Positions 4,123 to 26,437 are shown, counted from the first letter of the stretch. The stretch: DNA of 32,723 bases from a virus (IMGVR_UViG_3300012964_000035:1-32723), one strand, 5' to 3'. Numbers and translations: made by a program. The notes: generated by a model not told the origin, from the sequence alone.

Positions 4123-4151
4123 TTGACTTTCGGTCAGAGCTTTGTTAAACT
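4123..4151 (+). promoter_or_regulatory. Sigma70-like promoter, predicted leaderless start
   Basis: TTGACT (4123-4128), a 17-base spacer and TAAACT (4146-4151). Only 5 bases separate the -10 box from the ATG at 4157, so transcription should begin at or next to the start codon. There is no Shine-Dalgarno sequence. Confidence 0.6.
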
Positions 4152-4156
4152 GAACA

Positions 4157-4366
4157 ATGAACACATATTTTAACAAGCAAGCGAGAAATAGTGAATACTT
4201 CTTTATTTTGGAATCAGTAAAGAACACTAAGAAAAAAACAGTTAAGTTAGAATTACAAAAAATATCGACGGAGGCCAGGGCCTCCGTCGATATTGTTAAC
4301 TATGTATTTGTGCGATATGCAGCAAGTGGTAGTATACCAGTATTTAAATTAAAGGAAATCACATGA
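4157..4366 (+). CDS. Small hypothetical protein containing a long palindrome
   Basis: This 69-residue basic protein (MNTYFNKQARNSEYFFILES...) has no family I recognise. It is the first gene after DNA polymerase and opens a unit that continues into the sliding clamp. Its ATG lies 5 bases after a sigma70-like -10 box and has no ribosome-binding site. The codons for KISTEARASVDI coincide with a perfect 16-bp inverted repeat (4261-4294), so this stretch may be constrained by DNA or RNA structure rather than by protein function. Its stop overlaps the next start by 4 bases (ATGA). Confidence 0.6.
   Translation: MNTYFNKQARNSEYFFILESVKNTKKKTVKLELQKISTEARASVDIVNYVFVRYAASGSIPVFKLKEIT
4261..4294. repeat. 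Perfect 16-bp inverted repeat with 2-base centre
   Basis: The left arm AATATCGACGGAGGCC (4261-4276) and right arm GGCCTCCGTCGATATT (4279-4294) are exact reverse complements around AG. No T-run follows, so it is not a standard intrinsic terminator. It lies inside a small gene two genes before the sliding clamp. Confidence 0.9.
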
Positions 4367-4554
4367 ACATTACAGCAATAAGAAAAGATGATATTATTTT
4401 TATCCAGACACCGGTGGGCCAGCTACCCCCGGCCAAGGTTGAAGAACGCATTAATGAGATTAAAAAGGATTTTGGTGAATATTTTGATAATGCAATGATC
4501 ATCTTAGGTACATTAGATGAAGAGTACACGTTTGAGATTTTAAGAAAGGAATAA
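4363..4554 (+). CDS. Small hypothetical protein
   Basis: This 63-residue acidic protein (MNITAIRKDDIIFIQTPVGQLPPAKVEERINEI...) overlaps the preceding stop by 4 bases and ends 2 bases before the sliding clamp start, so it is translationally linked to the clamp. The sequence alternates short beta-like and helical segments. I recognise no motif, and a function cannot be assigned from context alone. Confidence 0.65.
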   Translation: MNITAIRKDDIIFIQTPVGQLPPAKVEERINEIKKDFGEYFDNAMIILGTLDEEYTFEILRKE

Positions 4555-4556
4555 AA

Positions 4557-5288
4557 ATGTTATTAGATGCATTAAGAGATATTGTAAAGCACACACATTC
4601 GTTGGGCTTTATTGAAATGGTAAAAGTTATCGGTACCAGTACCGATTTAAAGATTGAAACAAAAGACGACAATAATACAGTTATCATCTATGGTAATATG
4701 TATCAACCGGTTAAAGATCTTGAAAGCACCGTTGGTCTTTCTCAGATGGGTGTGCTAAAAGGTTTTATCACTATGATGCCAGAGAAAACTAATTTGTCTG
4801 TCTCGAAAGAACAAAGAAACGGTATCGATTCACCTGTCGGTGTGAAATTTGATGGAGCAGGATTTCTGGCTAACTATCGATTTATGTCGGAATCAATGAT
4901 TAATGATCAGGTTAAGGTGCCTCCATTCAAAGGTGCGTCTTGGGATATTACCATTGATCCCAGTAAGGCATCAGTTGATCGACTGAACAGTACATTTGGC
5001 GTTCTGGGAAGCCTTGAAAAAAGATTTACAGTTATTGTAGACAAAGGTAACTTAAATTTCCAAGTAGGTTCCGGCCCCACAAACAGTGTAACAACCACAT
5101 TTGCAGAAGGTGTAACAGGCAATCTAAAACACCAATGGACTTATCCATTGGGTCAGGTGCTTAGTATTCTAAAGCTTGTTGATACCTCGAATGCAAAAAT
5201 GAGTTTTTCAGATATGGGTGCTTTGAAGATTGATATTGACAGCGGTACTGGAAAATATTCTTATATTCTTCCAGCTGGCAAAGCCTAA
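4557..5288 (+). CDS. 45: Sliding clamp (gp45-like DNA polymerase processivity factor)
   Basis: This 243-residue protein is close in length to T4 gp45 (228). It resembles that family in its alternation of short helices and long strands and in segments such as VKDLESTVGLSQMGVLKGFI near residues 52-72 and the closing IDSGTGKYSYILPA, which matches the position of the T4 NYVVAL-type end. gp45 forms a ring that tethers gp43 to DNA and, in T4, also activates late transcription. The position soon after DNA polymerase supports the call. The clamp loader genes (44/62) are not in this window. The assignment rests on pattern resemblance and context and is not certain at family level. Confidence 0.72.
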   Translation: MLLDALRDIVKHTHSLGFIEMVKVIGTSTDLKIETKDDNNTVIIYGNMYQPVKDLESTVGLSQMGVLKGFITMMPEKTNLSVSKEQRNGIDSPVGVKFDGAGFLANYRFMSESMINDQVKVPPFKGASWDITIDPSKASVDRLNSTFGVLGSLEKRFTVIVDKGNLNFQVGSGPTNSVTTTFAEGVTGNLKHQWTYPLGQVLSILKLVDTSNAKMSFSDMGALKIDIDSGTGKYSYILPAGKA

Positions 5289-5557
5289 TGGATCAACTTG
5301 AGCCGGGATGCCTGGCCAGAATCATTAAATCACTCGATGGGCTTTCGGTTGGTAAGACAGTCCAGTGTATTCATATTGTAGGCACACATTCTGAATATGG
5401 AATTGTTTGGCATGTGCGCTCAAACGAAACTCTGGTGACTGAATATGGTGGTGTCGGGCACGAAGCCGATGTTCCGGCTATATGGTTGAAGAAAATCAAG
5501 CCCGGTGAGATTCCAAAAATAACAGAAATAAACATCACTAAGACCGAAAAAATCTAA
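5288..5557 (+). CDS. Hypothetical phage protein downstream of the clamp
   Basis: The ATG shares one base with the clamp stop codon (TAATG), so the two are probably co-translated. The 89-residue product is rich in beta-branched and aromatic residues (GCLARIIKSL..., YGIVWHVRS...), which suggests a small beta-barrel such as an SH3-like fold. The C-terminus is Lys/Thr-rich and likely disordered. No family is recognised. Confidence 0.65.
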   Translation: MDQLEPGCLARIIKSLDGLSVGKTVQCIHIVGTHSEYGIVWHVRSNETLVTEYGGVGHEADVPAIWLKKIKPGEIPKITEINITKTEKI

Positions 5558-5564
5558 ATATAAC

Positions 5565-7136
5565 ATGACACAAAATAGAATAAATTTTACAGAGAGACAT
5601 ATCAACGGCGGCTGGGCAAAATATTTGCCAGCCATTAGTGGGTTCTATACAACACATCTCGGTAAGGCAGCAGCCGATGAAGAGTTTATACCTAAGGATC
5701 GTATTCCAGCAAATTTTGAATTAGGCATACAAGGACTTAATTTTTTAGACGAAGATAATAGCTATTTTAATTACAAGTTTGGATTATATTCTGCAGGCCA
5801 TGCTGAAAGAAATCTTTCAAAATGTGATGATAGAGAACCTATGATTCACAGACGTGATCGTAGTAAAACTATTCTTATCGGTGACTCTGGTGGATTCCAG
5901 ATTGCTACAGGTGTTATCAAGGTTGACTGGTCCACTGTTATGACACCAGCAGGAGATAAACTAAGAGAGGAAATTCTTAGATATCTCGAACACACGGCTG
6001 ATTGGTCAATGACTCTGGATGTGCCTGCCTTTGCAGCATTGCCACCATTAAGTGAAAAGACCGGACTAACAAAATTTGAGGATTGTTTAGATGTAACTGA
6101 ATACAATCTCAAATATTTCTTAGAACATCGCATACCAGGAAAGACAAAATTTCTAAATGTTTTGTCAGGCAGCGATAATGAAAATTCTAAGACATGGTAT
6201 CAGCGTGTATCTCAGTATAGCTATCCAGACTATGTTGAAGCAATTGGATATTCGCGCGATCGTGCATTCGAAGGATGGGCATTTGCTGGTATCAATATGA
6301 AGAATATGAAAACTGTTCTTGAAAGACTTTTAGACCTTCGAGCAGACGGTTTGCTTGAGGGTAAAGATTGGATTCACTTTCTGGGTATTGGTAGATTAGA
6401 CTGGGCATGCTATTTGACATCCATTGAACGGATGTTGAAGAAGTATGATAATCCTAATATCAATATTAGTTTTGATGCTGCGTCGCCATTTGTTGCAGCA
6501 GGTGGTTACGCATTATCTTACAACTATAATTATTTCAAACCAGACCAATTAACTTATGCAATGGGCAAAGGCATTGATGATAAGGTATTGAAGGGCAGCA
6601 AAAAAGCCATGCCATTTCAAGGTCCAATTATGGAACGCCTAACCGCAGGAGATGTATGTGTTATGGGTCCTGGCGATTTGAATAAACACAACAAAGAAGG
6701 CAAGACCAGTTGGGATACCACATCATATGCACTTGTCATGGCCCACAATGTCTATAATCACATTCAAGCCATTCAGGAAATTAATCGACTTGCTGATATC
6801 GATTATGCTACACGCAAGAAAGTAGATTATCGCGATTGGTATCAAATTCGCAATAAGAAGATTAACATCAACGACTTTGTACCTAATTCTATTATTTTCT
6901 TTAACAACTTTGTTGAGGTGTTACTTGACCCAAATACAAAGAACCCGTATAATATGTTAGACGAAAATGAAGTATTTCTCGACTATATTAGCTTTGGTGA
7001 CAAGAAGCCAGTGACAACATATGGTGATCTATTTGGAAGCAACGAAGATCATAGTAATGAAGATCATACTCCTACAGTTGAAGAACTAGCGAGTTTGGAT
7101 AAAGAAGATTTAATCAATATTGACGATGAAATATGA
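5565..7136 (+). CDS. dpdA: DpdA-like 7-deazaguanine DNA transglycosylase
   Basis: This 523-residue protein belongs to the tRNA-guanine transglycosylase superfamily. It has the hallmark DSGGFQ (107-112), a second acidic site TLDVP (D152), a GIGR loop (274-277), and SFDAASP (D304) in the place of the catalytic Asp in the late half of the barrel. In phages and bacteria, relatives called DpdA swap guanine in DNA for a 7-deazaguanine base such as preQ0, which blocks restriction enzymes. Bacterial Tgt is shorter (about 375 residues) and acts on tRNA. The extra length here and the nearby queD (12032) and queE (15225) favour a DNA role. The C-terminal 30 residues are acidic. The ribosome-binding site is weak. 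Confidence 0.8.
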   Translation: MTQNRINFTERHINGGWAKYLPAISGFYTTHLGKAAADEEFIPKDRIPANFELGIQGLNFLDEDNSYFNYKFGLYSAGHAERNLSKCDDREPMIHRRDRSKTILIGDSGGFQIATGVIKVDWSTVMTPAGDKLREEILRYLEHTADWSMTLDVPAFAALPPLSEKTGLTKFEDCLDVTEYNLKYFLEHRIPGKTKFLNVLSGSDNENSKTWYQRVSQYSYPDYVEAIGYSRDRAFEGWAFAGINMKNMKTVLERLLDLRADGLLEGKDWIHFLGIGRLDWACYLTSIERMLKKYDNPNINISFDAASPFVAAGGYALSYNYNYFKPDQLTYAMGKGIDDKVLKGSKKAMPFQGPIMERLTAGDVCVMGPGDLNKHNKEGKTSWDTTSYALVMAHNVYNHIQAIQEINRLADIDYATRKKVDYRDWYQIRNKKININDFVPNSIIFFNNFVEVLLDPNTKNPYNMLDENEVFLDYISFGDKKPVTTYGDLFGSNEDHSNEDHTPTVEELASLDKEDLINIDDEI

Positions 7137-7329
7137 TCTACAATCTAAGCTTTCAACACTAGAAGCTATGATAGGTGTTCAGACTCAAAGCTTATCTCAG
7201 GGATATATGCATGGGATGTTGAATGGGCTTATTTGCGCCCATTCAATTTTTTCAAATCAGCCACCATCGTATGTATCCATGCCGAGAAAAAGAACAAAAA
7301 TTAGACACAAGAATAAGAAAGAATTATGA
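7126..7329 (+). CDS. Small conserved phage protein
   Basis: I chose ATG 7126, giving 67 residues and an 11-base overlap with the DpdA-like gene; a TTG two codons earlier is also possible. The protein has a helical N-terminal half (KYDLQSKLSTLEAMIGVQ..., GYMHGMLNGLICAHSIF) and a very basic tail (RKRTKIRHKNKK). The tail suggests nucleic-acid contact, but I cannot name a function. Its stop overlaps the next start by 4 bases. Confidence 0.6.
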   Translation: MKYDLQSKLSTLEAMIGVQTQSLSQGYMHGMLNGLICAHSIFSNQPPSYVSMPRKRTKIRHKNKKEL

Positions 7330-8156
7330 CACAAAAATTATGCATTTATCATGGAAATTGTTTGGATGGATTCACCGCAGCATGGATTGTCCGCAAGGCT
7401 TTAGGTGATATTGAATTTTTCGCAGGTTATTATCAGAATCCGCCACCAGATGTTACCGATAAAGATGTCTACATTGTGGACTTTTCATACAAGCGGCCAG
7501 TAATGGAAGAACTTGCAAAGAAAGCGAATAAAATTATTCATATTGATCACCATGCAAGTGCTATTATTGATATGCAAGGGTTTGATGCAATTGAAAAATA
7601 TTATAGCGAAGATAATAGTGCAAGCGGCGCCATGCTATGTTGGAGATATTTCTTCCCAGAAACCGAACCTATCGATCTAGTCAAATCAGTGGATGATAGG
7701 GATCGATGGGCATTTAAGATTCCTGGCACACGAGAAGTACAGGCTTCTATATTCAGCTATGAATACACATTTGAAAACTGGGATATGTTAGCAAGTTTAC
7801 CGATTACACAGTTAGAGAATGAAGGTAAAGCCATTGACAGAAAACATTTTAAAGACATTAAGGAACTTGTTGGGGCTATGACCAGACGAATGAATATTGC
7901 TGGTTATAATGTGCCGGTGATTAATGTTCCATATACATTAGGTTCTGATGCTGGTAACATACTTGCGAAAAATGAACCATTTTCTGCATACTACTATGAA
8001 AAGAAAGACCGCGTAGAGTTCGGTCTACGATCGGATAGCAAAAATCCCGATGCAATAGATGTATCTAAGATTGCAGTTATGTTTGGCGGTGGTGGTCATA
8101 AGAATGCAGCAGGATTTAGCGTAAGTTTCGAAGTTGCAAAAAAATTCCAAGATTAA
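7326..8156 (+). CDS. DHH-family phosphoesterase (oligonucleotide or cyclic dinucleotide type)
   Basis: This 276-residue protein has the full DHH layout: motif I YHGNCLDGF (H9, N11, D14), motif II IVDFSY (D52), motif III IDHHAS (D74, H75, H76), motif IV DDRDRW (D123, D124), and a C-terminal DHHA1 domain ending GGGGHKNAAGFS. These residues bind two metal ions. Family members hydrolyse nanoRNA, pAp or cyclic di-nucleotides. Here it could recycle short oligonucleotides during host DNA breakdown or cleave a cyclic-nucleotide defence signal. Nothing in the sequence decides between these. It is co-transcribed with the DpdA-like gene through a 4-base ATGA overlap and is preceded by AAGAAAG. Confidence 0.85.
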   Translation: MTQKLCIYHGNCLDGFTAAWIVRKALGDIEFFAGYYQNPPPDVTDKDVYIVDFSYKRPVMEELAKKANKIIHIDHHASAIIDMQGFDAIEKYYSEDNSASGAMLCWRYFFPETEPIDLVKSVDDRDRWAFKIPGTREVQASIFSYEYTFENWDMLASLPITQLENEGKAIDRKHFKDIKELVGAMTRRMNIAGYNVPVINVPYTLGSDAGNILAKNEPFSAYYYEKKDRVEFGLRSDSKNPDAIDVSKIAVMFGGGGHKNAAGFSVSFEVAKKFQD

Positions 8157-8158
8157 TT

Positions 8159-8365
8159 ATGTGGACAAAAATTAAAGAATGGTTAGATCCCAACACGGAA
8201 ATAAAAAAGAAGATAGAAGAATCTAAAAAGAGAAATGCGGACTTTGTTTCCTCACTTGATATGAGACAGCGTGATTACTATTTTTCTCTCACCGATTCTT
8301 GGCGCAAAGAGCTGGTTCGTTTAGAAAAGCGCGTCTACGATCTTGAAAATCATGAAAAAGTATAG
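8159..8365 (+). CDS. Small hypothetical charged helical protein
   Basis: This 68-residue protein is almost entirely Lys/Glu/Arg-rich helix (IKEWLDPNTEIKKKIEESKKR..., LVRLEKRVYDLENHEKV). The C-terminal third has heptad-like spacing compatible with a short coiled coil. It starts 2 bases after the DHH gene and overlaps the next one. No family recognised. Confidence 0.6.
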   Translation: MWTKIKEWLDPNTEIKKKIEESKKRNADFVSSLDMRQRDYYFSLTDSWRKELVRLEKRVYDLENHEKV

Positions 8366-8771
8366 CACATCCGAAAAGAAACCATCGAAGATGTTCATCC
8401 GTTCACTTAACGGTGGTGGTTCATCTTCGATTTACTGCAACTGTGGCAGGCAGCATTATGCACCAGAAAATCTTTATGGAAGTGATCACGAAGGCGACTA
8501 TGAGAGTATGTTAGCAAGTGCTCTTGCAGAAAAGGCTGATGACGAAGACGGCATTGTGATACACTATAATACAGATTTCGTATATGCCAAGGATATTGAT
8601 AATAAAACATTTGTTGTCGATTGCCCTTGTAATGGGTTAAGAAAGTACGAAGAGTGGATCTGGAACAATAGAGAAATTATACGGGACTATCTAAAAGTAA
8701 GAGTGGAGCAAGAACACGCCTGGGCACAGCAGGAACTAACACTTAATAAATTAGCAGGAATTTCAAAATGA
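8352..8771 (+). CDS. Hypothetical protein with paired cysteine motifs (possible zinc binder)
   Basis: I chose ATG 8352 (139 residues), which overlaps the previous gene by 14 bases. Two short cysteine pairs, CNCGRQH near residue 30 and CPCNG near 97, flank an acidic middle segment and could jointly bind zinc. A WIWNNREIIRDYL helix follows. The family is not recognised. The stop overlaps the next start by 4 bases. Confidence 0.65.
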   Translation: MKKYSTSEKKPSKMFIRSLNGGGSSSIYCNCGRQHYAPENLYGSDHEGDYESMLASALAEKADDEDGIVIHYNTDFVYAKDIDNKTFVVDCPCNGLRKYEEWIWNNREIIRDYLKVRVEQEHAWAQQELTLNKLAGISK

Positions 8772-8929
8772 ATGAAGACGAAGAAGCTGACCTCATTATC
8801 GAAAGACTAAAGAAGACTAAGAAAGAAAAGATGCAAGAGGATTTCGAGAAGACGCTATCAGCACTTATTGAACATCTTGCTGAAAAAGCAGAAAAGGCAT
8901 TATCTCTGCACAAGTCATTGCAGAAATAA
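8768..8929 (+). CDS. Very small acidic/basic helical protein
   Basis: A 53-residue frame, MNEDEEADLIIERLKK..., begins in an ATGA overlap with the preceding gene and ends at TAA 8927-8929, 13 bases before the next start. It is a single charged helix. The phrase EADLIIERLK resembles QADLIIEKLK in the protein at 9377-9670, so the two may share a small domain. The overlap geometry supports translation. Confidence 0.5.
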   Translation: MNEDEEADLIIERLKKTKKEKMQEDFEKTLSALIEHLAEKAEKALSLHKSLQK

Positions 8930-8942
8930 AAGAAGATTTTGA

Positions 8943-9185
8943 ATGAAAGAAAAAGAAGAAAAAAGAGACATCCTTGGTCAACCACTTTCAGAAGGTTCGT
9001 ATGTTGCGGTCGCACACCACAACGGATTGTATGTATGTGTTATTAAGAAGATAACACCAAAAAAATTGCGAGTGAGAAATATAAAATCATCTCCAGAATC
9101 GGATGGTTGGTTGGTTTATTCTACAGAAACTGTTAAACTAAGTGGTGAAGATGCATTAGCATACATCTTGACATATGCAAAATGA
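8943..9185 (+). CDS. Small hypothetical protein, likely SH3-like fold
   Basis: This 80-residue protein starts with a charged stretch (KEKEEKRDILGQPL) and continues as alternating strands (SYVAVAHHNGLYVCVIKKI...KLRVRNI). The pattern is typical of the small beta-barrel proteins that fill T4-like genomes. The function is unknown. It overlaps the next gene by 4 bases (ATGA). Confidence 0.6.
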   Translation: MKEKEEKRDILGQPLSEGSYVAVAHHNGLYVCVIKKITPKKLRVRNIKSSPESDGWLVYSTETVKLSGEDALAYILTYAK

Positions 9186-9376
9186 ATAACCACAACGACA
9201 ATGAACAAAAACGCGATCCACTGAACCCAGATTCAGAACAATCCTTGTTTGAAAAATTAAGCATGGATGAAGAAGACTATGTTGCATTGCAATTTATCCG
9301 ACACGCGGTTAAGAAGATCATTAAAGATGAACATACATATGGAAATCAACACCAACAAGGCAATGCTGATAAGTAG
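9182..9376 (+). CDS. Small hypothetical hydrophilic protein
   Basis: This 64-residue protein is rich in Asn, Asp, Gln and His (MNNHNDNEQKRDPLNPDSEQ...), with one helical core (DYVALQFIRHAVKKIIKDE). Both ends look disordered. The stop at 9374-9376 directly abuts the next ATG. No function can be given. Confidence 0.55.
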   Translation: MNNHNDNEQKRDPLNPDSEQSLFEKLSMDEEDYVALQFIRHAVKKIIKDEHTYGNQHQQGNADK

Positions 9377-9670
9377 ATGAAAATTTTAAAAAATATTGTT
9401 ATAGCAGAATCGAAGAAATTAAATGTGGTATGGTCCACACTTGATACAGATTCTATAATAGAAGAGAAACCAATTGATATCTCTAAGCTAACACGGGATG
9501 AGCAAGCTGATCTTATTATTGAAAAGCTCAAGGCTCCGCCGAAACCAATTCGAACGCTCGAAGACGAGCTGGCAGACATTCTTTCAATGGAGATAGCGGC
9601 CGCGATTGATAAAGAAATAATCGAAAAATTATCTGTGTTACCAAATCTTTTATCTAAAGGACAATTATGA
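9377..9670 (+). CDS. Small hypothetical protein
   Basis: This 97-residue protein starts immediately after the preceding stop and overlaps the glycosyltransferase start by 4 bases. Its middle (RDEQADLIIEKLKAPPKP) resembles the N-terminus of the 53-residue protein at 8768. It may have arisen by duplication within this cluster of small genes. No enzymatic motif is visible. Confidence 0.6.
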   Translation: MKILKNIVIAESKKLNVVWSTLDTDSIIEEKPIDISKLTRDEQADLIIEKLKAPPKPIRTLEDELADILSMEIAAAIDKEIIEKLSVLPNLLSKGQL

Positions 9671-10842: not shown

Positions 10843-10843
10843 T

Positions 10844-11245: not shown

Positions 11246-11246
11246 T

Positions 11247-17492: not shown

Positions 17493-18536
17493 ATGCACAC
17501 GTATCTTCTCACAGACGGACAAAATCTTTTTCATCGCCAAATCAACATGACTAATCCTGGGCTGGGATTAGATTCCGCTATCGGAATGGCACTACACATG
17601 ATTCTATATAGTATGAAGAAAGAATGGAATTCATTCAATGGGACACATGCTGTATTTTTTATGGAAGGGCGTTCCTGGCGGAAAGATGTTTATCCTGATT
17701 ATAAAGCCAATCGCGCAGTAGCACACGCCGCATTGACTGAAAGAGAGCAGGAAGATAAAGAAATTCTACAAGGCGCTTTCGACGATCTTGTGGATTTCCT
17801 TGATACACACACTAATATCACAGTTCTTCAAAATCCAAAGGCTGAGGCCGACGATATGATTTCACTGTGGATTGAATCCCACCCCAATGATAGGCATGTA
17901 CTTATTAGCTCGGATTCAGATTTCTATCAACTTCTTCGCCACCCGAATTTGACAATTTATGATCCAGTTAAGGATATTCAGATTCGGCAGGATGGTATTT
18001 ATAACGACGATGGAAAGAAATTAGCTTTTGTTGTAGATACAACTGCCAAGATCAAGGTCGGTAAACCAGATCCTGATTTTGTTGTTCCTACCGACTGGTA
18101 TGAATACGCATTATTCCTAAAATGTGTTCGCGGTGACAAAACTGACAACATTTTTAGCGCATATCCTGGTGTTCGCGAAAAAGGTACCAAGACAACTGTT
18201 GGTATCCGAGAAGCGTACGAAGATAAGGGTAAGGGCTATGCATGGAATAACTTTATGCTTCAGAAGTGGGTAGATCATAATCAAGTCGAACAGCGAGTAA
18301 AAGAAATGTACGAGCGTAATCGCCTGTTAATTGATCTTTCACAAATTCCCGACAATGTCAAGACTGAATGTCTAACTATTATTGCAACTGAAATTGAACG
18401 AAAGGATGTTCCTGCTGTTGATATCGGTGTGCAATTTATGAAATTCGCAGGAAGATGGGGATTAACCAAAATTGGTAATAATGCAAATCAATTTATGCCG
18501 ATGCTGAAATCTAAATATAATTCTACTATTGAGTGA
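17493..18536 (+). CDS. rnh: T4 RNase H-like 5'-3' exonuclease (FEN family)
   Basis: This 347-residue protein has the metal-binding acidic residues of phage 5' nucleases in order: TDGQNLF (D8), KAEADDMI (E118, D120, D121), ISSDSDF (D141, D143), and the helix-hairpin-helix region RGDKTDNIFSAYPGV (D215, D218). T4 RNase H (305 residues) removes RNA primers and flaps from lagging-strand fragments and works with polymerase and gp32. The central arch around residues 160-200 carries a Lys/Asp-rich insertion. It starts at ATG 17493 directly behind a sigma70-like promoter with no ribosome-binding site. The position away from the DsbA-like gene differs from T4. Confidence 0.88.
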   Translation: MHTYLLTDGQNLFHRQINMTNPGLGLDSAIGMALHMILYSMKKEWNSFNGTHAVFFMEGRSWRKDVYPDYKANRAVAHAALTEREQEDKEILQGAFDDLVDFLDTHTNITVLQNPKAEADDMISLWIESHPNDRHVLISSDSDFYQLLRHPNLTIYDPVKDIQIRQDGIYNDDGKKLAFVVDTTAKIKVGKPDPDFVVPTDWYEYALFLKCVRGDKTDNIFSAYPGVREKGTKTTVGIREAYEDKGKGYAWNNFMLQKWVDHNQVEQRVKEMYERNRLLIDLSQIPDNVKTECLTIIATEIERKDVPAVDIGVQFMKFAGRWGLTKIGNNANQFMPMLKSKYNSTIE

Positions 18537-19816: not shown

Positions 19817-19835
19817 AATATCCCCTTATCGTTAT

Positions 19836-19843
19836 TATTTATC
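19836..19843 (-). promoter_or_regulatory. Late-type promoter octamer GATAAATA (minus strand)
   Basis: On the minus strand it reads CTTGATAAATAATAAC, matching the context before the HNH gene (GCTTGATAAATATATT). It lies 20 bases before the start codon at 19816. Confidence 0.6.
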
Positions 19844-19877
19844 AAGAAATATTTTGATCCAATAAATACGTGTTTTT

Positions 19878-19885
19878 GATAAATA
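19878..19885 (+). promoter_or_regulatory. Late-type promoter octamer GATAAATA (plus strand)
   Basis: TTTTTGATAAATATATG lies 27 bases before the ATG at 19913 and is divergent from the octamer at 19836-19843. A weaker copy, AATAAATA, is at 19861-19868. Confidence 0.5.
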
Positions 19886-19912
19886 TATGTATACTTATTG
19901 GAGAAGATAACA

Positions 19913-20571: not shown

Positions 20572-20572
20572 A

Positions 20573-22033
20573 TTAGCTCTGTATTAAAAAATTCTCAAAA
20601 CGCCACGGGTGACGTGGATCGGTGTTTGTTCTGAATAGTGAATTTCTATCCGATAGTGGCGTCCAATTAGTAGGTACACTTGCAATAGGTCCGAGATAGG
20701 GTCTGGCAATATTCAGAATAAATTCATATGGTAATTCTTCAGGTTCAACATAACCACGATTTGGATTCTGTATCATCCACACTATCCCGGCGAGTAGATT
20801 CGCACCTACCTGGATAGTCGTTGGCCCTTCACCCGGAAGTAAGCTTCTGGATTCTTCAATTCCTAATTGAGAACCATACCACCATCCATTCATTCCGTGT
20901 CCTAGTAACAGTACACCAAGTTCGTCAATGCCACTTATAATTTCTTCTTTAACTACACGTTTCTTATCCTGAATTCGAAGTTCTCTTCCGCGGAATTCAT
21001 GGACTGATGCAATTGCTGCATCACACGGGCAATACACATAATGAACTGTAGGACGAAAAACAGGATTACCGTCTTTTGATAGTGTAAAATAGTCACTCAT
21101 AGTTACGGATTCGCTGTGTTGTACAATGAAACCATTGTATGATCCGCCTTTCGGTACCCATGACTTAGCAAGAGTCGCCACGCCTGGGGATTTTAAAAAA
21201 GCTGCGTTACCGGGCCCTTCCCGGTGAACATATCCATTAGGCGGCATAGGTCTTTCATGTGTCCCCCAACCCATCTCCGAAGGTGCACGGCCTTCGGCCC
21301 AGAAACCCTCGCAAGACCATGTGTTGACAAATTCACCCTTTACCTTGGGTACATCAATCACCTGGGTGTCCCTTTCTGCAATGTGAACTACTTTTGTACC
21401 AGTACTCATCATTAATGTTGCCCACTGTTCCCTTGTCTGTGGAATATCAAATTCTAAATTCATTGCATTCGCAATGTCAACTAATGCTGCCTTTGTAAAT
21501 TGACTTACCAGCCCCGGATTAGCACCATTTGTTACCAATGCAGTTGGACCTTTATTTTTCCATGGTTCAGTAATGGCGCGGATTCTTGAGTGGGTAACAT
21601 ATAAAGTTCTATCAGCTAATTCTGGTATTGTTTCATCTGGTTCATCGGGCCAGCGCTCAATGGAAGTATCAGTATAAAGAACACCATTTCTTAAACACCA
21701 GGTGACAATTTCAATACCGTCAATATTCAATGACAAATTGATTAGAAGGCCACCAGGTCCCACATATTTTTTTAATGTGTCTTCCATATTATCTCTGACA
21801 ATTTCTTTAATAACATATTTTACACCAGTGTGACTGTATTTTTCTTGAAAAAGTTTAAGGTGATTATCTTTTTCTAAGACAGTAATCTTACGAGGATCCA
21901 CCTTGATGTGTCTTAGTAGTAAAGGAAGCATTGTCTGCCCCACGCCACCGAAACCCAAGAGCAAGATGTGGCCATCGAATTGGGCCAATTTCTTACCGTC
22001 GAGATTAATGCCTTTAATATCACCTAATTTCAT
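20573..22033 (-). CDS. Homospermidine synthase-like enzyme
   Basis: This 486-residue enzyme has the saccharopine-dehydrogenase-type fold of bacterial homospermidine synthase. It starts with an NAD-binding loop GFGGVGQ (27-33), followed by TVLEKD, LLINLSLNIDG, LYTDTSIERW and NGANPGLVSQFTK, and a long catalytic domain with the conserved GSxNGFIVQH- and GHGMNGWW-type segments. The length fits the bacterial enzyme (about 475 residues). Homospermidine synthase joins two putrescines using NAD. Polyamines neutralise packaged DNA, so a late role in filling capsids is plausible. A late-type octamer lies 37 bases upstream and the ribosome-binding site is AGGT, inside a set of 19-bp repeats. Substrate choice is not proven. 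Confidence 0.8.
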   Translation of the reverse strand: MKLGDIKGINLDGKKLAQFDGHILLLGFGGVGQTMLPLLLRHIKVDPRKITVLEKDNHLKLFQEKYSHTGVKYVIKEIVRDNMEDTLKKYVGPGGLLINLSLNIDGIEIVTWCLRNGVLYTDTSIERWPDEPDETIPELADRTLYVTHSRIRAITEPWKNKGPTALVTNGANPGLVSQFTKAALVDIANAMNLEFDIPQTREQWATLMMSTGTKVVHIAERDTQVIDVPKVKGEFVNTWSCEGFWAEGRAPSEMGWGTHERPMPPNGYVHREGPGNAAFLKSPGVATLAKSWVPKGGSYNGFIVQHSESVTMSDYFTLSKDGNPVFRPTVHYVYCPCDAAIASVHEFRGRELRIQDKKRVVKEEIISGIDELGVLLLGHGMNGWWYGSQLGIEESRSLLPGEGPTTIQVGANLLAGIVWMIQNPNRGYVEPEELPYEFILNIARPYLGPIASVPTNWTPLSDRNSLFRTNTDPRHPWRFENFLIQS

Positions 22034-22077
22034 ATTATATACCTAATTTTATATTGTACACCTAATTACATATTTAT
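22021..22077. repeat. Three tandem 19-bp imperfect repeats over the homospermidine synthase start
   Basis: Units are CACCTAATTTCATATTATA (22021-22039), TACCTAATTTTATATTGTA (22040-22058) and CACCTAATTACATATTTAT (22059-22077). On the minus strand, unit 1 contains the start codon and codons 2-4 (ATGAAATTAGGT), and unit 2 supplies the ATTAGGT used as ribosome-binding site. The leader therefore looks like a duplicated copy of the gene's own first codons. Confidence 0.75.
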
Positions 22078-22078
22078 C
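22071..22078 (-). promoter_or_regulatory. Late-type promoter octamer GATAAATA for the homospermidine synthase operon
   Basis: The minus strand reads AAGATAAATATGTAATT, 37 bases upstream of the start codon at 22033. It partly overlaps the third 19-bp repeat. Confidence 0.55.
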
Positions 22079-22093
22079 TTAGAAGTGTAAACC

Positions 22094-22122
22094 TTGACTA
22101 ATGTATTGTTATCTGTTACAAT
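22094..22122 (+). promoter_or_regulatory. Sigma70-like promoter, predicted leaderless start
   Basis: TTGACT (22094-22099), a 17-base spacer and TACAAT (22117-22122). The ATG at 22128 is 5 bases beyond the -10 box, and there is no Shine-Dalgarno sequence. An in-frame ATG at 22101 lies inside the promoter and would be upstream of the transcript. Confidence 0.65.
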
Positions 22123-22127
22123 TACAT

Positions 22128-22352
22128 ATGAAAAGATTCACTGAGCAATTATCCCTCTGGGGTGCTATTTTGGGATCGTTACTCCTTGCCTTAAACATTT
22201 CCATTAGTGGTTGGGCATATATTCCTTTTCTTTTGTCAAATTTTGCAACAATTCACCTACTAAGAAAATCTAACGCATCAAAGGCTATAACCTACCAATC
22301 TTATTGGTTTGTTGCAATTAACGTTGTTGGTATTATCCGCTGGATTTTATAA
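22128..22352 (+). CDS. Small membrane protein
   Basis: This 74-residue protein has two or three hydrophobic segments: LWGAILGSLLLALNISISGWAYIPFLL (about 9-34), a short basic loop (LLRKSNASKA), and YWFVAINVVGIIRWIL at the end. The closing phrase resembles the last helix of small transporter-like proteins (PnuC/YgjV type), but the match is weak. The start at 22128 was chosen because the promoter covers the earlier ATG. Function unknown. Confidence 0.6.
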   Translation: MKRFTEQLSLWGAILGSLLLALNISISGWAYIPFLLSNFATIHLLRKSNASKAITYQSYWFVAINVVGIIRWIL

Positions 22353-22355
22353 ATA
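22348..22355 (+). promoter_or_regulatory. TATAAATA just before the gene at 22360
   Basis: An exact T4 late octamer ends 4 bases before the ATG at 22360. If active, transcription would start at or inside that start codon. It could also be read as a -10 box (TATAAA) without a good -35. It may be chance. Confidence 0.3.
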
Positions 22356-22359
22356 GTTC

Positions 22360-22722
22360 ATGGAATCGTTAAAGATTGCAATCTTCGCCGAAGTTAGAAA
22401 TTGCCACGAAAAAGCAGTGGGTCTAACCGATGAACAATTAAATCAATTGATATTTCATCATAACAACGGTCTTAGACTTACCTTTCATGGATTTCTAATG
22501 ATCAAGAAAATTTTCACTGCCTATAGCTTTGAAATGCCTGAAACCTTAAAGGCAAGACATCATTTTGGTATGTCATTGCTTTTATATCCATATTTTGTTA
22601 CTTCTAAGAGATTGGTTTTATTTTCTGAAATGGATGCTATGACTGTAAAACTTTGTGGCGGAATAGAAAGATTTTTAGAAAATCAATATCAGAGCAAAAT
22701 GGAAGATCGCCAACACGGATAG
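22360..22722 (+). CDS. Conserved hypothetical phage protein
   Basis: This 120-residue protein contains GLRLTFHGFLMIKKIFTAYSFEMP, then YPYFVTSKRLVLFSEMDAMTVKLCGGIERFLEN. I recall this order (a 'GF..+KK.F..Y' helix followed by a 'TSKRLVLFSE..A...KLCGG' strand-helix unit) from many short phage proteins of unknown function. It has no ribosome-binding site; an octamer TATAAATA lies just upstream. Confidence 0.65.
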   Translation: MESLKIAIFAEVRNCHEKAVGLTDEQLNQLIFHHNNGLRLTFHGFLMIKKIFTAYSFEMPETLKARHHFGMSLLLYPYFVTSKRLVLFSEMDAMTVKLCGGIERFLENQYQSKMEDRQHG

Positions 22723-22741
22723 CTCTTGTTGACCGGTCCTG

Positions 22742-22770
22742 TTGACGTCTGGACATTGGTGTGCTACACT
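22742..22770 (+). promoter_or_regulatory. Sigma70-like promoter, predicted leaderless start
   Basis: TTGACG (22742-22747), a 17-base spacer and TACACT (22765-22770), 5 bases before the ATG at 22776. A second -35-like TTGACC occurs at 22729-22734. No Shine-Dalgarno sequence is present. Confidence 0.6.
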
Positions 22771-22775
22771 CGATT

Positions 22776-23012
22776 ATGGGCAAACTTAAATTTGATCATC
22801 ACACTACCTGGAAACGGATGTTTGTCTGGTGGCCAACGAAATGTGATATAAGCAATCACATAATATTCTTTAGATATGGATATAGGTTGAGAGTTCTTGA
22901 GTATGCAAATGTCTATGGTATAAATTTCTGGAAGATTGTATGGGTTACTTCCGAAGAATTCCTGGCAGCAAAACTAAAAGATGAACAATGGACAAGATAT
23001 GAAGACTGGTGA
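22776..23012 (+). CDS. Small Trp-rich hypothetical protein
   Basis: This 78-residue protein is basic and aromatic (TTWKRMFVWWPTKCDISNHIIFFRYGYRLRVLEY) and ends WVTSEEFLAAKLKDEQWTRYEDW. The 'EEFLAAKLKDE' end is loosely like the DAL-FKLKY family seen elsewhere in the window. ATG 22776 was chosen because the alternative GTG 22761 lies inside the promoter. The function is unknown. Confidence 0.6.
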   Translation: MGKLKFDHHTTWKRMFVWWPTKCDISNHIIFFRYGYRLRVLEYANVYGINFWKIVWVTSEEFLAAKLKDEQWTRYEDW

Positions 23013-23442
23013 TAATCAACAATCACAGGACGCATTATATGAAGCATTGACGCTGAATCGCACCCTATGCGTGGCCACTATGCCACCATACTATGGTTAT
23101 AAAAACTATGGATATGATAGGTGGTGGACAAGTGGTGTCGATATTGTATATTTAAATCAAGAGGGTAAGAAACATCGGATATATGGGCCTGCCTATATCA
23201 GCAAAAAGTATGATATAGAAGAATGGCACAAAAATGGTGTCTTTCACCGAGAGGGTGGTCCTGCAGTTCGACATAGAAAAAATATGTACTGGTTTAAGGA
23301 AGGTGTATTACATCGCCTCGATGGTCCTGCAATAGATACTGGTGGCGGTCCGAAAGAATATTGGGTTGATGGGCAACAATTGTCGCCGAAAGAGTATAAG
23401 AAAGAAATCGCAAGAAGAAATCGTAAAAATATAATAAAATGA
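22981..23442 (+). CDS. MORN-like repeat protein
   Basis: This 153-residue protein contains at least two copies of a W-x-K/E-x-G-V-x-H-R-x-x-G-P-A repeat: WHKNGVFHREGGPAV and WFKEGVLHRLDGPAI, with partial copies before (HRIYGPAYI) and after (YWVDGQQL). Such short beta-hairpin repeats occur in many phage proteins of unknown role and resemble MORN repeats. ATG 22981 overlaps the previous gene by 32 bases; ATG 22999 is an alternative. It overlaps the next gene by 4 bases. Confidence 0.65.
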   Translation: MNNGQDMKTGDNQQSQDALYEALTLNRTLCVATMPPYYGYKNYGYDRWWTSGVDIVYLNQEGKKHRIYGPAYISKKYDIEEWHKNGVFHREGGPAVRHRKNMYWFKEGVLHRLDGPAIDTGGGPKEYWVDGQQLSPKEYKKEIARRNRKNIIK

Positions 23443-24302
23443 CCAAAAAATCACTTCACCAAATATTAACGCCAGTACTTGATATTATTTCCCTTGTCTA
23501 TTCTCAACCAGATTTATTCAATCTGTCTGGACTAGGCATTGACGACAAACTTACATTAGCAAAGGATGATCCTAATTTTTTTATTGATAAGCTTGGATTC
23601 GATAAACTTAATATATATGATAAATCATTTGTATTATTACATTCGCGGAATAAAAAAATTCTAAACAAAGTTTCCATTCCTGAATCGGATTACAAGAAAC
23701 TATCAGATGAAACATATGCCCAGCTTCTTGAAAAAGATTTTGACAAATATATTTCCAAGGAAAGATTCGACTTGCTAACCAATGCTTATCAGAACCGTGT
23801 ATTTTTGAACAACCCCGAATGGGTTATGTTGAATGCTGGTGAGATACCAAAATTGACCAGGGACAATTTATCTGCACTTGCAGATAATAATCGAGCATTC
23901 GTAGATACTTATATAAAAGAGTTCACAGGTCTGTGCACAGATGCGTATTTCTGGATCGATATGATAAAGCACAATTGGTGTTATGCCAGTATATTTTTGA
24001 AAAATACAAAATATGTAGCGACAAAAACAGATGTACGGGTTGTCTTCAGAGAATATCCATTGCTTATCAAAGAAATTGACAAAGACATTATTGCTAATTC
24101 AAAACTTAGCATTAAAGAATGGATCCTAATGATGGATTCTGTTATCGAGAACAATAAAGATAAATTTAAAGATTGGAACTTTTCTGATGATCTTATAGAG
24201 ATATTTAGATTAGACCTTATGGCTGAATTATTAAATGGGAAATCCAAACTCTCAAAGAGATTTCAGAATGCAATGAAAAATGTGTTTGATGAAAATGAAT
24301 GA
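23439..24302 (+). CDS. Hypothetical helical protein, 287 residues
   Basis: The sequence is almost all alpha-helical, rich in Asp, Lys, Leu and Asn, with recurring 'D.Y...L..N' phrases (FVLLHSRNKKILNKVSIPESDYKKL, NNPEWVMLNAGEIPKLTRDNLSALADNN). The pattern suggests a helical-repeat scaffold. It is one of the larger unassigned proteins in the window and begins in an ATGA overlap. I recognise no family. Confidence 0.6.
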   Translation: MTKKSLHQILTPVLDIISLVYSQPDLFNLSGLGIDDKLTLAKDDPNFFIDKLGFDKLNIYDKSFVLLHSRNKKILNKVSIPESDYKKLSDETYAQLLEKDFDKYISKERFDLLTNAYQNRVFLNNPEWVMLNAGEIPKLTRDNLSALADNNRAFVDTYIKEFTGLCTDAYFWIDMIKHNWCYASIFLKNTKYVATKTDVRVVFREYPLLIKEIDKDIIANSKLSIKEWILMMDSVIENNKDKFKDWNFSDDLIEIFRLDLMAELLNGKSKLSKRFQNAMKNVFDENE

Positions 24303-24513
24303 TGAGGACATAACAGCATTATCTCTTAAATATCAATGCAGAAAAACGTGTATAGGAAAGATATTTGTGGATAACGGCCAGGCAGTTGTTATTTTAGATG
24401 AAAATAATAATGTTATCAACGAGGAAGAATTTAGAAGAAAAGTTCGTGACTATATGAAAACAAAGATAATAAATGAGATAGCAGGCTTGCCAGTAAGGGA
24501 AAGCAGTGTCTGA
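24295..24513 (+). CDS. Small hypothetical protein
   Basis: Three closely spaced ATG codons (24280, 24289, 24295) are possible starts. I took 24295, which gives 72 residues beginning MNDEDITALSLKYQCRK, because it overlaps the preceding gene least. A strand pair (GKIFVDNGQAVVILDENNNVI) and a helix (EEFRRKVRDYMKTKI) follow. It shares layout with the next protein (short helix, 'Y.. DN..VVEI/VVIL', then a strand), and the two may be diverged duplicates. Function unknown. Confidence 0.5.
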   Translation: MNDEDITALSLKYQCRKTCIGKIFVDNGQAVVILDENNNVINEEEFRRKVRDYMKTKIINEIAGLPVRESSV

Positions 24514-24718
24514 AGAAATGATATATCTGGCCTTACGATATAAAGCCAGTTATCAGCCTGGGTATATCTACTACAGGGACAATGACAATATGGTTGTTGA
24601 AATTTACACAATCGATGGTAGAAGAATACCGTCGGAAGAGCACATCAGTGTGCGTGTACAGGTAATAAAGATGAGACAAATGGATAAGGCGAGGAAACAG
24701 AATGAAAAATCCACTTAA
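24506..24718 (+). CDS. Small hypothetical protein with GTG start
   Basis: GTG 24506 is preceded by AAGGGA (24495-24500), so I prefer it over ATG 24518. The 70-residue product (SEEMIYLALRYKASYQPGYIYYRDNDNMVVEIYTIDG...) has the same order of elements as the preceding protein. Its TAA shares the palindrome TTAA (24715-24718) with the stop of the convergent GIY-YIG gene. Confidence 0.55.
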   Translation: MSEEMIYLALRYKASYQPGYIYYRDNDNMVVEIYTIDGRRIPSEEHISVRVQVIKMRQMDKARKQNEKST

Positions 24719-25374
24719 AACATTTTACAATTATCGAAGTGCCATCTTCTCATAGCTGATGATTTACCCATCTTTCCGCAATGAGGGCATGTAATAGACG
24801 GCCTATTATTAGCAGCATCTTTTATTTTCTGCAATGATTCAGGTGTATGAGTTTTACCGAACATATGATTATTTTCTCCTGCATGGGAATCACTATTTTT
24901 CTTTTTATGTTCTTCGGTCTGTTTCTTTCCCCGTTTAGTATTGCTTAGTTTAACTTTTGCTTCGCTAGACATAGGTTTACCGTAATTGATATTTCTTTCT
25001 CCCTTATGCGAATCGCTCATTTTCTGTTTCCATTCTTCGGAAAATGATTCTCTTTTAATACCTGCTGTATGAAATCTACAATTTAAATGGCAATATTTAT
25101 TTAAACACAATTCGTTTTTAATATTTTTATCTATTAATTGCTGTTCAAACAGATAACATTTATCATAATCTTTATCTTCTATTAAAATACTAAATTCGAA
25201 ACTACCCTTACCGTATTTGTTGATAAGTCGCTTTATGTATTTTGATGATGTAAAATAATGAACCCACAGATCTTCTTGAGGCGTTCTGTTTAACATAACA
25301 TTTCTATACCGTGATCCGTAATAGAACTGATTGGTAATTTTATTCTTAATTAAATAGGTGTATGCTAAATACAT
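24715..25374 (-). CDS. GIY-YIG homing endonuclease with NUMOD3 repeats and C-terminal zinc finger
   Basis: This 219-residue protein has an N-terminal GIY-YIG-type domain with the variant YTYLIKNKITNQFYYGSR (first 23 residues), the Y and YYG elements, and a downstream catalytic Glu in CYLFEQQLID (about 95). NUMOD3-like DNA-binding repeats (SEEWKQKMSDSHKGERN, SSEAKVKLSNTKRGK, TEEHKKKNSDSHAGENN, TPESLQKIKDA) fill residues 110-190. A C2HC finger (C196, C199, H212, C216) ends it, nearly identical to that of the HNH protein at 294-1109. AAGGAG precedes the start, and a hairpin and late-type octamer lie further upstream. Confidence 0.85.
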   Translation of the reverse strand: MYLAYTYLIKNKITNQFYYGSRYRNVMLNRTPQEDLWVHYFTSSKYIKRLINKYGKGSFEFSILIEDKDYDKCYLFEQQLIDKNIKNELCLNKYCHLNCRFHTAGIKRESFSEEWKQKMSDSHKGERNINYGKPMSSEAKVKLSNTKRGKKQTEEHKKKNSDSHAGENNHMFGKTHTPESLQKIKDAANNRPSITCPHCGKMGKSSAMRRWHFDNCKMF

Positions 25375-25400
25375 AGCTGATGCTCCTTATAAGCGTTAGA

Positions 25401-25430
25401 GTAGTTGGGGACGGCAATCCCGCGAACTAC
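25401..25430 (-). promoter_or_regulatory. Leader hairpin of the GIY-YIG gene
   Basis: GTAGTT (25401-25406) pairs with AACTAC (25425-25430), and GGGA (25408-25411) with TCCC (25418-25421), giving a two-part stem with a CGGCAA loop. It lies between the late-type octamer (25434-25441) and the AAGGAG ribosome-binding site (25383-25388), so it would be in the 5' leader of the late transcript. T4 homing endonuclease genes are known to carry leader hairpins that limit early translation. This one does not itself cover the ribosome-binding site. Confidence 0.45.
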
Positions 25431-25433
25431 ACT

Positions 25434-25441
25434 TATTTATC
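25434..25441 (-). promoter_or_regulatory. Late-type promoter octamer GATAAATA for the GIY-YIG gene
   Basis: On the minus strand it reads TACGATAAATAAG, 60 bases upstream of the start codon. It lies 8 bases from the -35 box of the divergent phosphatase promoter. Confidence 0.55.
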
Positions 25442-25448
25442 GTATTTC

Positions 25449-25477
25449 TTGACAATTAGTTAATTAATTTGTATAAT
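25449..25477 (+). promoter_or_regulatory. Perfect-consensus sigma70 promoter, predicted leaderless start
   Basis: TTGACA (25449-25454), a 17-base spacer and TATAAT (25472-25477), all at consensus. The phosphatase ATG at 25484 follows after 6 bases, so the mRNA should begin at or beside the start codon. No ribosome-binding site is possible in such a transcript. Confidence 0.9.
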
Positions 25478-25483
25478 ACTATA

Positions 25484-26437
25484 ATGAAAAATCCATTAAA
25501 AGTTCTTGAACCTAATTTACTTGGGTCCGACTATGTCATAGGCGATCTTCACGGTTCGTTCTCGGCGTTTAAAAATCTCATTCAGAATCTGAATTTTAAT
25601 TCCGAATCTGACCGCATTATTTCTGTGGGAGATTTGGTCGACAGAGGACCAGACAGTTTAAGTTGCCTATCTTTGATTCGTGAACCGTGGTTCCACTCTG
25701 TATTCGCTAATCACGAACAATTGATGGTTGCAAAATTTAAAGGCGAGCTCAGGGGACAATACTGGTACCCGAATGGTGGTCATTGGGGTATGGAAGCATA
25801 TAACGACTATAAGGCCGTTTATATTGACCACGACTCAAACCGTATACCATCTGATCATAGCATGGAAGTTATTGATCTATTACCGCTTGTTGAAGAACTA
25901 CCTTACCTTATTACCGTAAATACAAAGAGTGGTAAAAAATTCCATGTGTTACATGCCGAGCTACCGTCTGGAACACTGGTAACGGATGAGGTATTAACTG
26001 ATCCAGAAAAGGTCTATCGGTTAGCTACTATTCAGCGTGGTGATGGAGATGCATTCTTATGGTCAAGGAATATCTACCATGATTTCTATTCTCGCAACCT
26101 AAGTAACAAGGAAATGAATATCCAACGAGTGTCTGGCCCAAGCCTGAGTATGTTTAATAAAAACCTTTCTCATATCATTTCGGGTCACACTATTGTGCAA
26201 AAGCCGCTGACTATTATAGCGCAAACTAACATAGACACAGGGGCCTACGGATCCTATTGGAAACCTGTGGAACCCTATGCAACCGGTGGCCAGTCACCTC
26301 AACCGTGGGCAGGGCTGACCTGCGTAGAGTTGGAATCCTGGAAGTTCTATAAAGCAACGGAATCCAATTTTAGCGAAGTGGAACCCGTTGTAATCACAGA
26401 AGAAGATCTTAATGGACGTTTATTTCCCCGAGTATAA
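25484..26437 (+). CDS. Ser/Thr (calcineurin-like) phosphoprotein phosphatase
   Basis: This 317-residue protein has the metallophosphatase signature: GDLHG (D21, H23), GDLVDRGP (49-56), ANHEQ (N76, H77, E78) and a late SGHT His. It resembles lambda-type bacteriophage phosphatases, which remove phosphate from Ser/Thr/Tyr/His and may reverse host or defence kinase action. At 317 residues it is longer than lambda phosphatase (221), with an extended C-terminal part. It is driven by the strongest promoter in the window with a predicted leaderless start, which suggests early high-level transcription. Diadenosine tetraphosphatase activity is an alternative for this fold. Confidence 0.85.
   Translation: MKNPLKVLEPNLLGSDYVIGDLHGSFSAFKNLIQNLNFNSESDRIISVGDLVDRGPDSLSCLSLIREPWFHSVFANHEQLMVAKFKGELRGQYWYPNGGHWGMEAYNDYKAVYIDHDSNRIPSDHSMEVIDLLPLVEELPYLITVNTKSGKKFHVLHAELPSGTLVTDEVLTDPEKVYRLATIQRGDGDAFLWSRNIYHDFYSRNLSNKEMNIQRVSGPSLSMFNKNLSHIISGHTIVQKPLTIIAQTNIDTGAYGSYWKPVEPYATGGQSPQPWAGLTCVELESWKFYKATESNFSEVEPVVITEEDLNGRLFPRV

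What the first reader, a model, noticed from the sequence alone, without database searches (positions are those of the whole stretch)
4123..25486. A set of five sigma70 promoters placed for leaderless mRNAs
Genes at 4157, 17493, 22128, 22776 and 25484 share one design: a -35 box close to TTGACA, a spacer of exactly 17 bases, a -10 box, then only 5 or 6 bases to the ATG, and no ribosome-binding site. The promoter at 25449-25477 is perfect consensus. With a normal start site, the mRNAs would begin at or next to the AUG. Three other promoters in the window (26605, 28328, 31686) have ordinary leaders and ribosome-binding sites, so this is a distinct class. Single leaderless phage mRNAs are known (lambda cI), but a recurring group that includes a replication nuclease and a phosphatase would be unusual. 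It could favour translation by 70S ribosomes when initiation is disturbed.
Basis: partly seen in the sequence, partly recalled or inferred. Interest (0 to 1): 0.8.

Follow-up and report, generated by a model that had tools for sequence, protein, structure and literature searches.

The report
Leaderless promoters across a jumbo-phage clade
In this giant freshwater phage, and throughout its relatives, dozens of genes have their promoter set so close that the predicted mRNA starts at the first letter of the start codon with no ribosome-binding leader; this is a conserved second way of starting genes, not chance, although no transcript has yet been mapped.

Summary
Exactly the five named sites in the window fit TTGACA-N17-TATAAT-N5/6-ATG with a long ORF (shuffled mean 0.52, maximum 3 in 300). 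The window is a fragment of a jumbo T4-like phage. In eight relatives the placement recurs 39 times against 1 in shuffled upstreams. The ATG distance is bimodal (N5-6 or about N24-30), AUG only, and absent with wrong spacers. Leaderless genes lack Shine-Dalgarno motifs (1-3%) while leadered ones have them (72-74%); the base before the AUG is a pyrimidine, as at a transcription start. RaK2, CBB and T4 lack the class. At the exonuclease the geometry is kept in 11 of 16 orthologs although spacers diverged. The phosphatase promoter is not conserved. The "70S translation" idea is untested. No 5' ends were mapped, so leaderlessness is a strong inference. Leaderless phage mRNAs are known; a conserved two-promoter class in one jumbo clade appears to be a new variant.

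The parts
4123..4156 (+). sigma70-type promoter TTGACT-N17-TAAACT-N5 abutting ATG 4157; lies 7-8 bp after the DNA polymerase stop codon
   Evidence: Sequence; a promoter at this spot is found in most of 35 polymerase-clamp intergenic regions of relatives, usually leadered in front of the clamp gene
4157..4366 (+). 69-aa ORF with leaderless start, first gene before the clamp-like gene 4557
   Evidence: No full-length homologue by tblastn; C-terminal motif resembles small ORFs at the same spot in L089, L112 and L124
17458..17492 (+). promoter TAGACA-N17-TATAAT-N6 abutting ATG 17493
   Evidence: Same geometry in 11 of 16 close orthologues; hexamers 89-93% identical, spacer 40%
17493..18536 (+). 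5'-3' exonuclease (T4 RNase H-like), leaderless start
   Evidence: Pfam PF02739 4.4e-16, phrog_107 2.5e-39
22094..22127 (+). promoter TTGACT-N17-TACAAT-N5 abutting ATG 22128
   Evidence: A -10 box 5-6 nt from ATG in five distinct orthologue contigs (L004, L005, L007, L008, L019); other upstreams in L002, L003, L009, L010, L013, L016
22128..22352 (+). 74-aa membrane-like small protein, leaderless start
   Evidence: Full-length homologues at 45-70% identity starting at residue 1
22348..22359 (+). T4-late-type box TATAAATA (22348-22355) plus N4 abutting ATG 22360; overlaps the stop codon of 22128
   Evidence: Same late box at N4-5 in 8 records of the clade, further loci
22360..22722 (+). 120-aa conserved protein, predicted leaderless late gene
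   Evidence: Homologues in more than 13 loci; no Pfam/PHROG function
22742..22775 (+). promoter TTGACG-N17-TACACT-N5 abutting ATG 22776
   Evidence: Sequence. The next gene's family (22981) has its own leaderless sigma70 promoter in 5 relatives, so a small gene probably sits between promoter and old gene here
22776..23012 (+). 78-aa orphan ORF, leaderless start
   Evidence: No homologue in fetched loci
25449..25483 (+). perfect-consensus promoter TTGACA-N17-TATAAT-N6 abutting ATG 25484
   Evidence: Sequence; not found upstream of orthologues in L003, L005, L006/L083, L007, L008/L082
25484..26437 (+). calcineurin-like Ser/Thr phosphatase (NinI-like), leaderless start
   Evidence: PF00149 6.2e-14; phrog_246 1.8e-51

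Best explanation
The window is part of a T4-like jumbo phage whose clade uses two ways to start its genes. Many genes have a promoter followed by a 20-30 nt leader with a Shine-Dalgarno motif. A second class has the -10 box (host sigma70 type) or the late box (NATAAATA, presumably read by the phage's gp55-like sigma) 4-6 nt before the ATG, so that RNA polymerase starts on the A of the AUG and the mRNA has no leader. Shown: the geometry, its excess over chance, its bimodality, its AUG dependence, its conservation, the absence of SD motifs and the pyrimidine at -1. Inferred: that transcription starts there and that ribosomes start on the 5'-terminal AUG. My preferred account of why (moderate confidence, about 0.4): it is a compact, self-contained start that lets single genes sit directly on a promoter, suiting inserted, mobile and low-abundance genes (homing endonucleases, repair enzymes, phosphatases, peptidases), while virion proteins keep leaders.
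For: Window enrichment 5 against 0.52. Clade: 39 against 1 (sigma70) and 69 against 8-9 (late). Offset peaks at N5/N6 (17, 28) and N4/N5 (29, 42 after summing TATAAATA and [ACG]ATAAATA) with valleys on both sides; no peak for GTG/TTG/CTG, for spacers 15/19, or for TATAAAT[CGT]. SD motif in 1% and 3% of leaderless genes against 74% and 72% of leadered ones; 77-84% have homologues in another genome, with alignments starting at residue <=4 in 82-84% of those. Pyrimidine before AUG: 20/21 (sigma70 N5), 38/52 (N6), 49/54 (late N5), against 46% of control ATGs. Exonuclease promoter: hexamers 0.89/0.93 identical, spacer 0.40. gp55 homologues in G001-G004, G012 and PA5oct. Ancestral promoter after DNA polymerase: leadered clamp in most relatives, other ORFs with a leaderless start in the window, L107 and L123. 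Leaderless late genes rich in homing endonucleases, leadered late genes rich in virion proteins. PA5oct gp262, detected by mass spectrometry, has its annotated start exactly at TATAAATA-N5-ATG.
Against: No transcript 5' end has been mapped. Some genes (4157, 17493, 22776) follow co-directional genes, so read-through mRNAs with leaders may also exist. Late N4 sites lack the pyrimidine bias (19/41), so that subset, which includes window gene 22360, is less secure. Homing-endonuclease enrichment is modest when counted without seed bias (phrog_655 9/48 against 3/68). Translation efficiency is unknown, so the low-abundance reading rests on gene functions only, and PA5oct gp262 is itself annotated as a structural protein.
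Confidence: 0.85

Rival explanations
1. The placement is chance: AT-rich promoter-like sequences near ATGs.
For: The promoter motif alone is at chance level in the window.
Against: Placement 5 against 0.52 in the window; 39 against 1 and 69 against 8-9 in relatives; other start codons, wrong spacers and variant boxes give no peak; T4, RaK2 and CBB, which are AT-richer than most of the clade, give no peak.
Confidence: 0.03
2. The promoters are real but the genes are mainly translated from longer read-through or upstream transcripts with ordinary leaders or translational coupling; the close promoter is secondary.
For: 4157, 17493 and 22776 follow co-directional genes at 36-53 bp; some orthologues (L006, L009) have no promoter and must be read as part of an operon.
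Against: 22128 and 25484 are preceded by opposite-strand genes; leaderless starts carry no SD motif (1-3%), so they would start poorly on read-through mRNA; pyrimidine bias at -1 indicates real transcription starts.
Confidence: 0.1
3. The class is an imprint of hosts that translate leaderless mRNAs well (as in Actinobacteria or Deinococcota) rather than a phage-specific device. (This concerns why the class exists and is compatible with leaderlessness itself.)
For: Leaderless genes exceed 20% in some bacterial groups and are recognised by the same signature, a -10 box about 12 bp before the start (PMC3160421); enterobacterial relatives RaK2 and CBB lack the class.
Against: Host unknown. PA5oct infects Pseudomonas and has a weak late peak; many genes of the same phages use SD leaders. 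The one host-gene search gave a 73% hit in a Bacteroidetes MAG contig of 5.8 kb that may itself be phage.
Confidence: 0.35
4. A phage-altered ribosome (bS21-bearing, without phage IF3) selects leaderless phage mRNAs.
For: bS21 in G001, G002, G003, G009, G012 and PA5oct; absent from RaK2 and CBB. Excess IF3 is known to disfavour leaderless mRNAs (PMC9031893). An initiator-like tRNA-Met in G001.
Against: G012 encodes IF3 and has the class; Phosso encodes bS21 and shows no N4/5 late site among the matches listed. Too few independent lineages.
Confidence: 0.1

Closest known systems
Leaderless mRNA of phage lambda cI (and single leaderless phage genes)
   Same: Promoter -10 at the start codon, transcript beginning at AUG, AUG preferred (PMC9031893, PMC3160421)
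   Different: One gene there; here many genes per genome and two promoter types, conserved over a clade
TA-led leaderless genes of Actinobacteria and Deinococcota
   Same: -10 box about 10-12 bp before the start codon, no SD motif (PMC3160421, PMC12340547)
   Different: Those are host genomes, where the -10 motif alone suffices; here full TTGACA-N17-TATAAT, and also T4-late boxes
Thermus phages phiYS40 and P23-45 with leaderless middle/late transcripts (recalled from memory, not checked in the library)
   Same: A phage with many leaderless transcripts of a temporal class
   Different: Different phages and host; their hosts use leaderless mRNAs widely; promoter types differ
T4 late promoters (TATAAATA, gp55)
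   Same: Same box, same position relative to the presumed start, gp55 homologue present (PMC2988020)
   Different: In T4 no late box sits 4-5 nt from an ATG with ORF >=40; here 71 do in the first nine records

Membership tests
Leaderless genes | -10 box placed so that the predicted transcription start coincides with the start codon | tested here: met
   N5/6 (sigma70) and N4/5 (late) peaks
Leaderless genes | No Shine-Dalgarno motif upstream | tested here: met
   1-3% against 72-74% in leadered genes of the same genomes
Leaderless genes | AUG rather than GUG/UUG | tested here: met
   GTG, TTG and CTG: no peak
Leaderless genes | Mapped transcript 5' end at the AUG | not testable with these tools
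   No RNA data; only the pyrimidine(-1)/A(+1) signature
sigma70 promoter | TTGACA/TATAAT with 17+/-1 spacer | tested here: met
   Spacer 17 strongest, 16 and 18 weaker, 15 and 19 none
T4-type late promoter | TATAAATA-like box and gp55 sigma in the same phage | tested here: met
   NATAAATA peak; gp55 homologues by phmmer and iterated HMM; gp33 and clamp dependence not tested
RaK2/PA5oct-like jumbo phages | Related DNA polymerase, exonuclease and genome size | tested here: inconclusive
   Best isolate matches about 43% identity (Phosso for the polymerase, PA5oct for the exonuclease); no tree was built

The most novel reading that the evidence does not exclude
Leaderless starts form a regulated second translation regime in these phages: during infection the ribosome pool or its initiation factors are altered (phage bS21, initiator tRNA or other factors) so that leaderless mRNAs from both early and late promoters are translated at a controlled, different rate from leadered virion mRNAs.
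Probability: 0.12. Interest if true: 0.85.

Novelty: new variant of a known kind. Interest (0 to 1): 0.62.

Why it matters
Start-site prediction for phages leans on Shine-Dalgarno motifs. Here a conserved fraction of genes would be missed or mis-started: in PA5oct gp213 the annotated start lies inside the predicted promoter. If confirmed, the clade offers paired leaderless and leadered genes on two polymerase forms within one infection, a natural test of what leaderless starts are for. The polymerase-clamp locus also shows a route by which new genes gain expression: an ORF landing on an existing transcription start.

Tried and rejected
(1) Link to absence of phage IF3: suggested by RaK2/CBB (IF3 present, no class) but rejected because G012 has IF3 and the class. 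(2) Phage S1-domain protein: none found. (3) Host assignment through the saccharopine dehydrogenase gene: not informative. (4) Homing-endonuclease enrichment by phmmer from leaderless seeds gave p about 2e-6 but is circular, so discarded; only the PHROG/Pfam tallies are used. (5) Initiator tRNA: initiator-like in G001 and partly in G005 only, so not a clade trait. (6) Conservation of the phosphatase promoter: looked for, not found.

Full report
Observation. The five sites are exactly as described. Counting all ATGs with an ORF of at least 60 aa on both strands (248), only these five have a TTGACA-N17-TATAAT match (<=2 mismatches per hexamer, <=3 in all) whose -10 ends 5 or 6 nt before the ATG. 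Shuffling each 60-nt upstream gives 0.52 on average and never more than 3 in 300 trials. At the other offsets tested (0-30) in the real sequence the count is 0-2. The motif as such is not enriched in the window (67 against 70 expected); the signal is the placement.

What the window is. It is a 32.7-kb linear IMG/VR fragment; its 4-20 kb stretch has no near match in phage records. It carries a family-B DNA polymerase related to T4 gp43, a sliding-clamp-like gene (by position next to the polymerase and by the gene annotated as clamp in the same place in Phosso; PHROG itself gives no function), a T4 RNase H-like exonuclease, a NinI-like phosphatase, RtcB and a saccharopine dehydrogenase. Close relatives (polymerase about 80%, exonuclease 66-83% identity) lie on contigs of up to 385 kb, so this is a jumbo T4-like phage; the nearest isolates are far (about 43%: Phosso, PA5oct, RaK2-like).

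Test on relatives without gene calling. For TTGACA-N17-TATAAT (<=1 mismatch per hexamer) in nine records (1.64 Mb, 543 sites) I recorded where an ATG followed by an ORF >=40 falls. The histogram is bimodal: N5 17 and N6 28, about 2-3 per position for most of N7-N18, then a hump at N24-N30 (leadered genes). GTG, TTG and CTG show no N5-6 peak; spacers 15 and 19 show none; spacers 16 and 18 show a weak one; shuffled genomes are flat. With shuffled upstreams as null, G001-G008 have 39 against 1.

T4-late-type boxes (NATAAATA) behave the same way: N4 29 and N5 42, a valley, then a leadered hump at N16-N27; TATAAAT[CGT] gives nothing. Against shuffled upstreams it is 69 against 8-9. In the window this is gene 22360 (TATAAATA-GTTC-ATG), conserved in eight records. 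gp55-like sigma factors are present in G001-G004, G012 and PA5oct. T4 late boxes sit about one helical turn before the start site (PMC2988020), which puts the start at or next to the AUG.

Do transcripts start at the A? RNA was not available. The indirect signs agree. The base before the AUG is a pyrimidine in 20/21 (sigma70 N5), 38/52 (sigma70 N6) and 49/54 (late N5) cases against 46% in control ATGs; the late N4 group (19/41) lacks the bias and is the weakest part. SD motifs occur in 1% and 3% of leaderless starts and 74% and 72% of leadered ones. Part of this is forced because the -10 box occupies the space, but it means that these starts have no SD alternative. Homologues in another genome exist for 77-84%, and in 82-84% of those the alignment begins within the first four residues, as in leadered genes; control ATGs give a similar figure (83%), so the N-terminal alignment is consistent with, but not specific proof of, these starts.

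Conservation site by site. Exonuclease: geometry kept in 11 of 16 close orthologues; hexamers 89-93% identical while the spacer is 40% and the discriminator 32% identical. Distant marine orthologues (about 46%) often have the same kind of promoter with a leader of about 25 nt and an SD motif. 22128: kept in five distinct orthologue contigs, replaced by other upstreams in six. 4157: the promoter 7-8 bp after the polymerase stop codon is found in most of 35 relatives and usually drives the clamp gene through a leader with an SD motif; in the window, L107 and L123 another ORF begins 5 nt after its -10 box (in L109 and L120 an ATG also lies 6 nt after a box in this interval, but no ORF was called there). 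I read this as genes landing on an existing transcription start. 22776: orphan; the next gene's family (22981) is leaderless in five relatives. 25484: the perfect promoter is private to the window; it is not present upstream of orthologues.

Distribution. The class is present in the close relatives examined, G001-G010, in the marine relative G012 and in pooled loci related at 41-51%; weak in PA5oct (late only, five sites); absent from RaK2, CBB and T4, and no N4/5 late site appears among the matches listed for Phosso (list truncated). It is thus a lineage trait, not a general property of AT-rich phages.

Which genes. Representative leaderless genes: exonuclease, ATP-dependent DNA ligase, UV endonuclease, calcineurin-like phosphoesterases, D-Ala carboxypeptidase-like and cell-wall hydrolase-like proteins, radical SAM, small unknown proteins, and free-standing homing endonucleases. 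In G001-G003 the leaderless late set is led by homing endonuclease families (phrog_655 9 of 48, NUMOD3 8 of 48; further members superoxide dismutase, NUDIX, endonuclease VII), with no virion family among the 25 listed. The leadered late set lists virion structural, tail tube, baseplate wedge and head-tail proteins (phrog_655 3 of 68). This suggests, but does not show, a link with low-dose or inserted genes.

Mechanism. Most likely host sigma70 holoenzyme, or the gp55 form, starts on the A of AUG and the ribosome engages the 5'-terminal AUG. General features of leaderless translation (AUG preference, inhibition by excess IF3, stimulation by initiator tRNA, 70S entry) are from PMC9031893. I tested whether absence of phage IF3 tracks the class: it does not (G012). 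Phage bS21 tracks it better but not perfectly (Phosso). Support from an isolate: PA5oct gp262, annotated as mass-spectrometry detected, begins exactly at TATAAATA-N5-ATG, so a gene of this layout is made into protein.

Prior knowledge. Leaderless mRNAs are long known (lambda cI) and common in some bacteria, recognised by the same -10-at-start signature (PMC3160421, PMC12340547). Many leaderless transcripts in Thermus phages are recalled from memory and were not checked. In the open library I found no report for this clade or for leaderless T4-type late promoters; subscription papers are not covered. Verdict: real, conserved, clade-wide; a new variant of a known kind; function open.

Noticed in passing
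window 2020-2035: The DNA polymerase reading frame is broken at about 2026-2031 in the window; all eight relatives checked read through without interruption. Assembly error or natural lesion.
   Followed up: partly
G001 and G003 (L160-L163, L200-L202): Near-complete sets of tRNA genes (about 45-50 each) plus a permuted-type tmRNA candidate; G001 has an initiator-like tRNA-Met at L161:16168-16253.
   Followed up: partly
G001, G002, G003, G009, G012, PA5oct, Phosso: Phage-encoded ribosomal protein bS21; in G012 it lies next to an IF3 gene.
   Followed up: partly
late leaderless genes, e.g. L156:6254-6640, L172:19395-19760, L212:1967-2341: Several families begin with an N-terminal motif like MKIxEILxE, which resembles from memory the T4 capsid-targeting/prohead-protease site; 13 of 95 leaderless late genes against 8 of 204 leadered (redundant families, crude regex).
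   Followed up: partly
PA5oct NC_071039 180252-180267: Annotated start of gp213 lies inside the predicted late promoter; the likely start is the in-frame ATG 15 nt downstream.
   Followed up: no
window 294-1109 (-) and 24715-25374 (-): Two NUMOD3 proteins, the second with a GIY-YIG/SegE-like domain, probable free-standing homing endonucleases.
   Followed up: partly
window 4261-4295: Near-perfect inverted repeat (atatcgacggaggcc-agg-gcctccgtcgatat) inside the small ORF 4157, without a T run after it.
   Followed up: no
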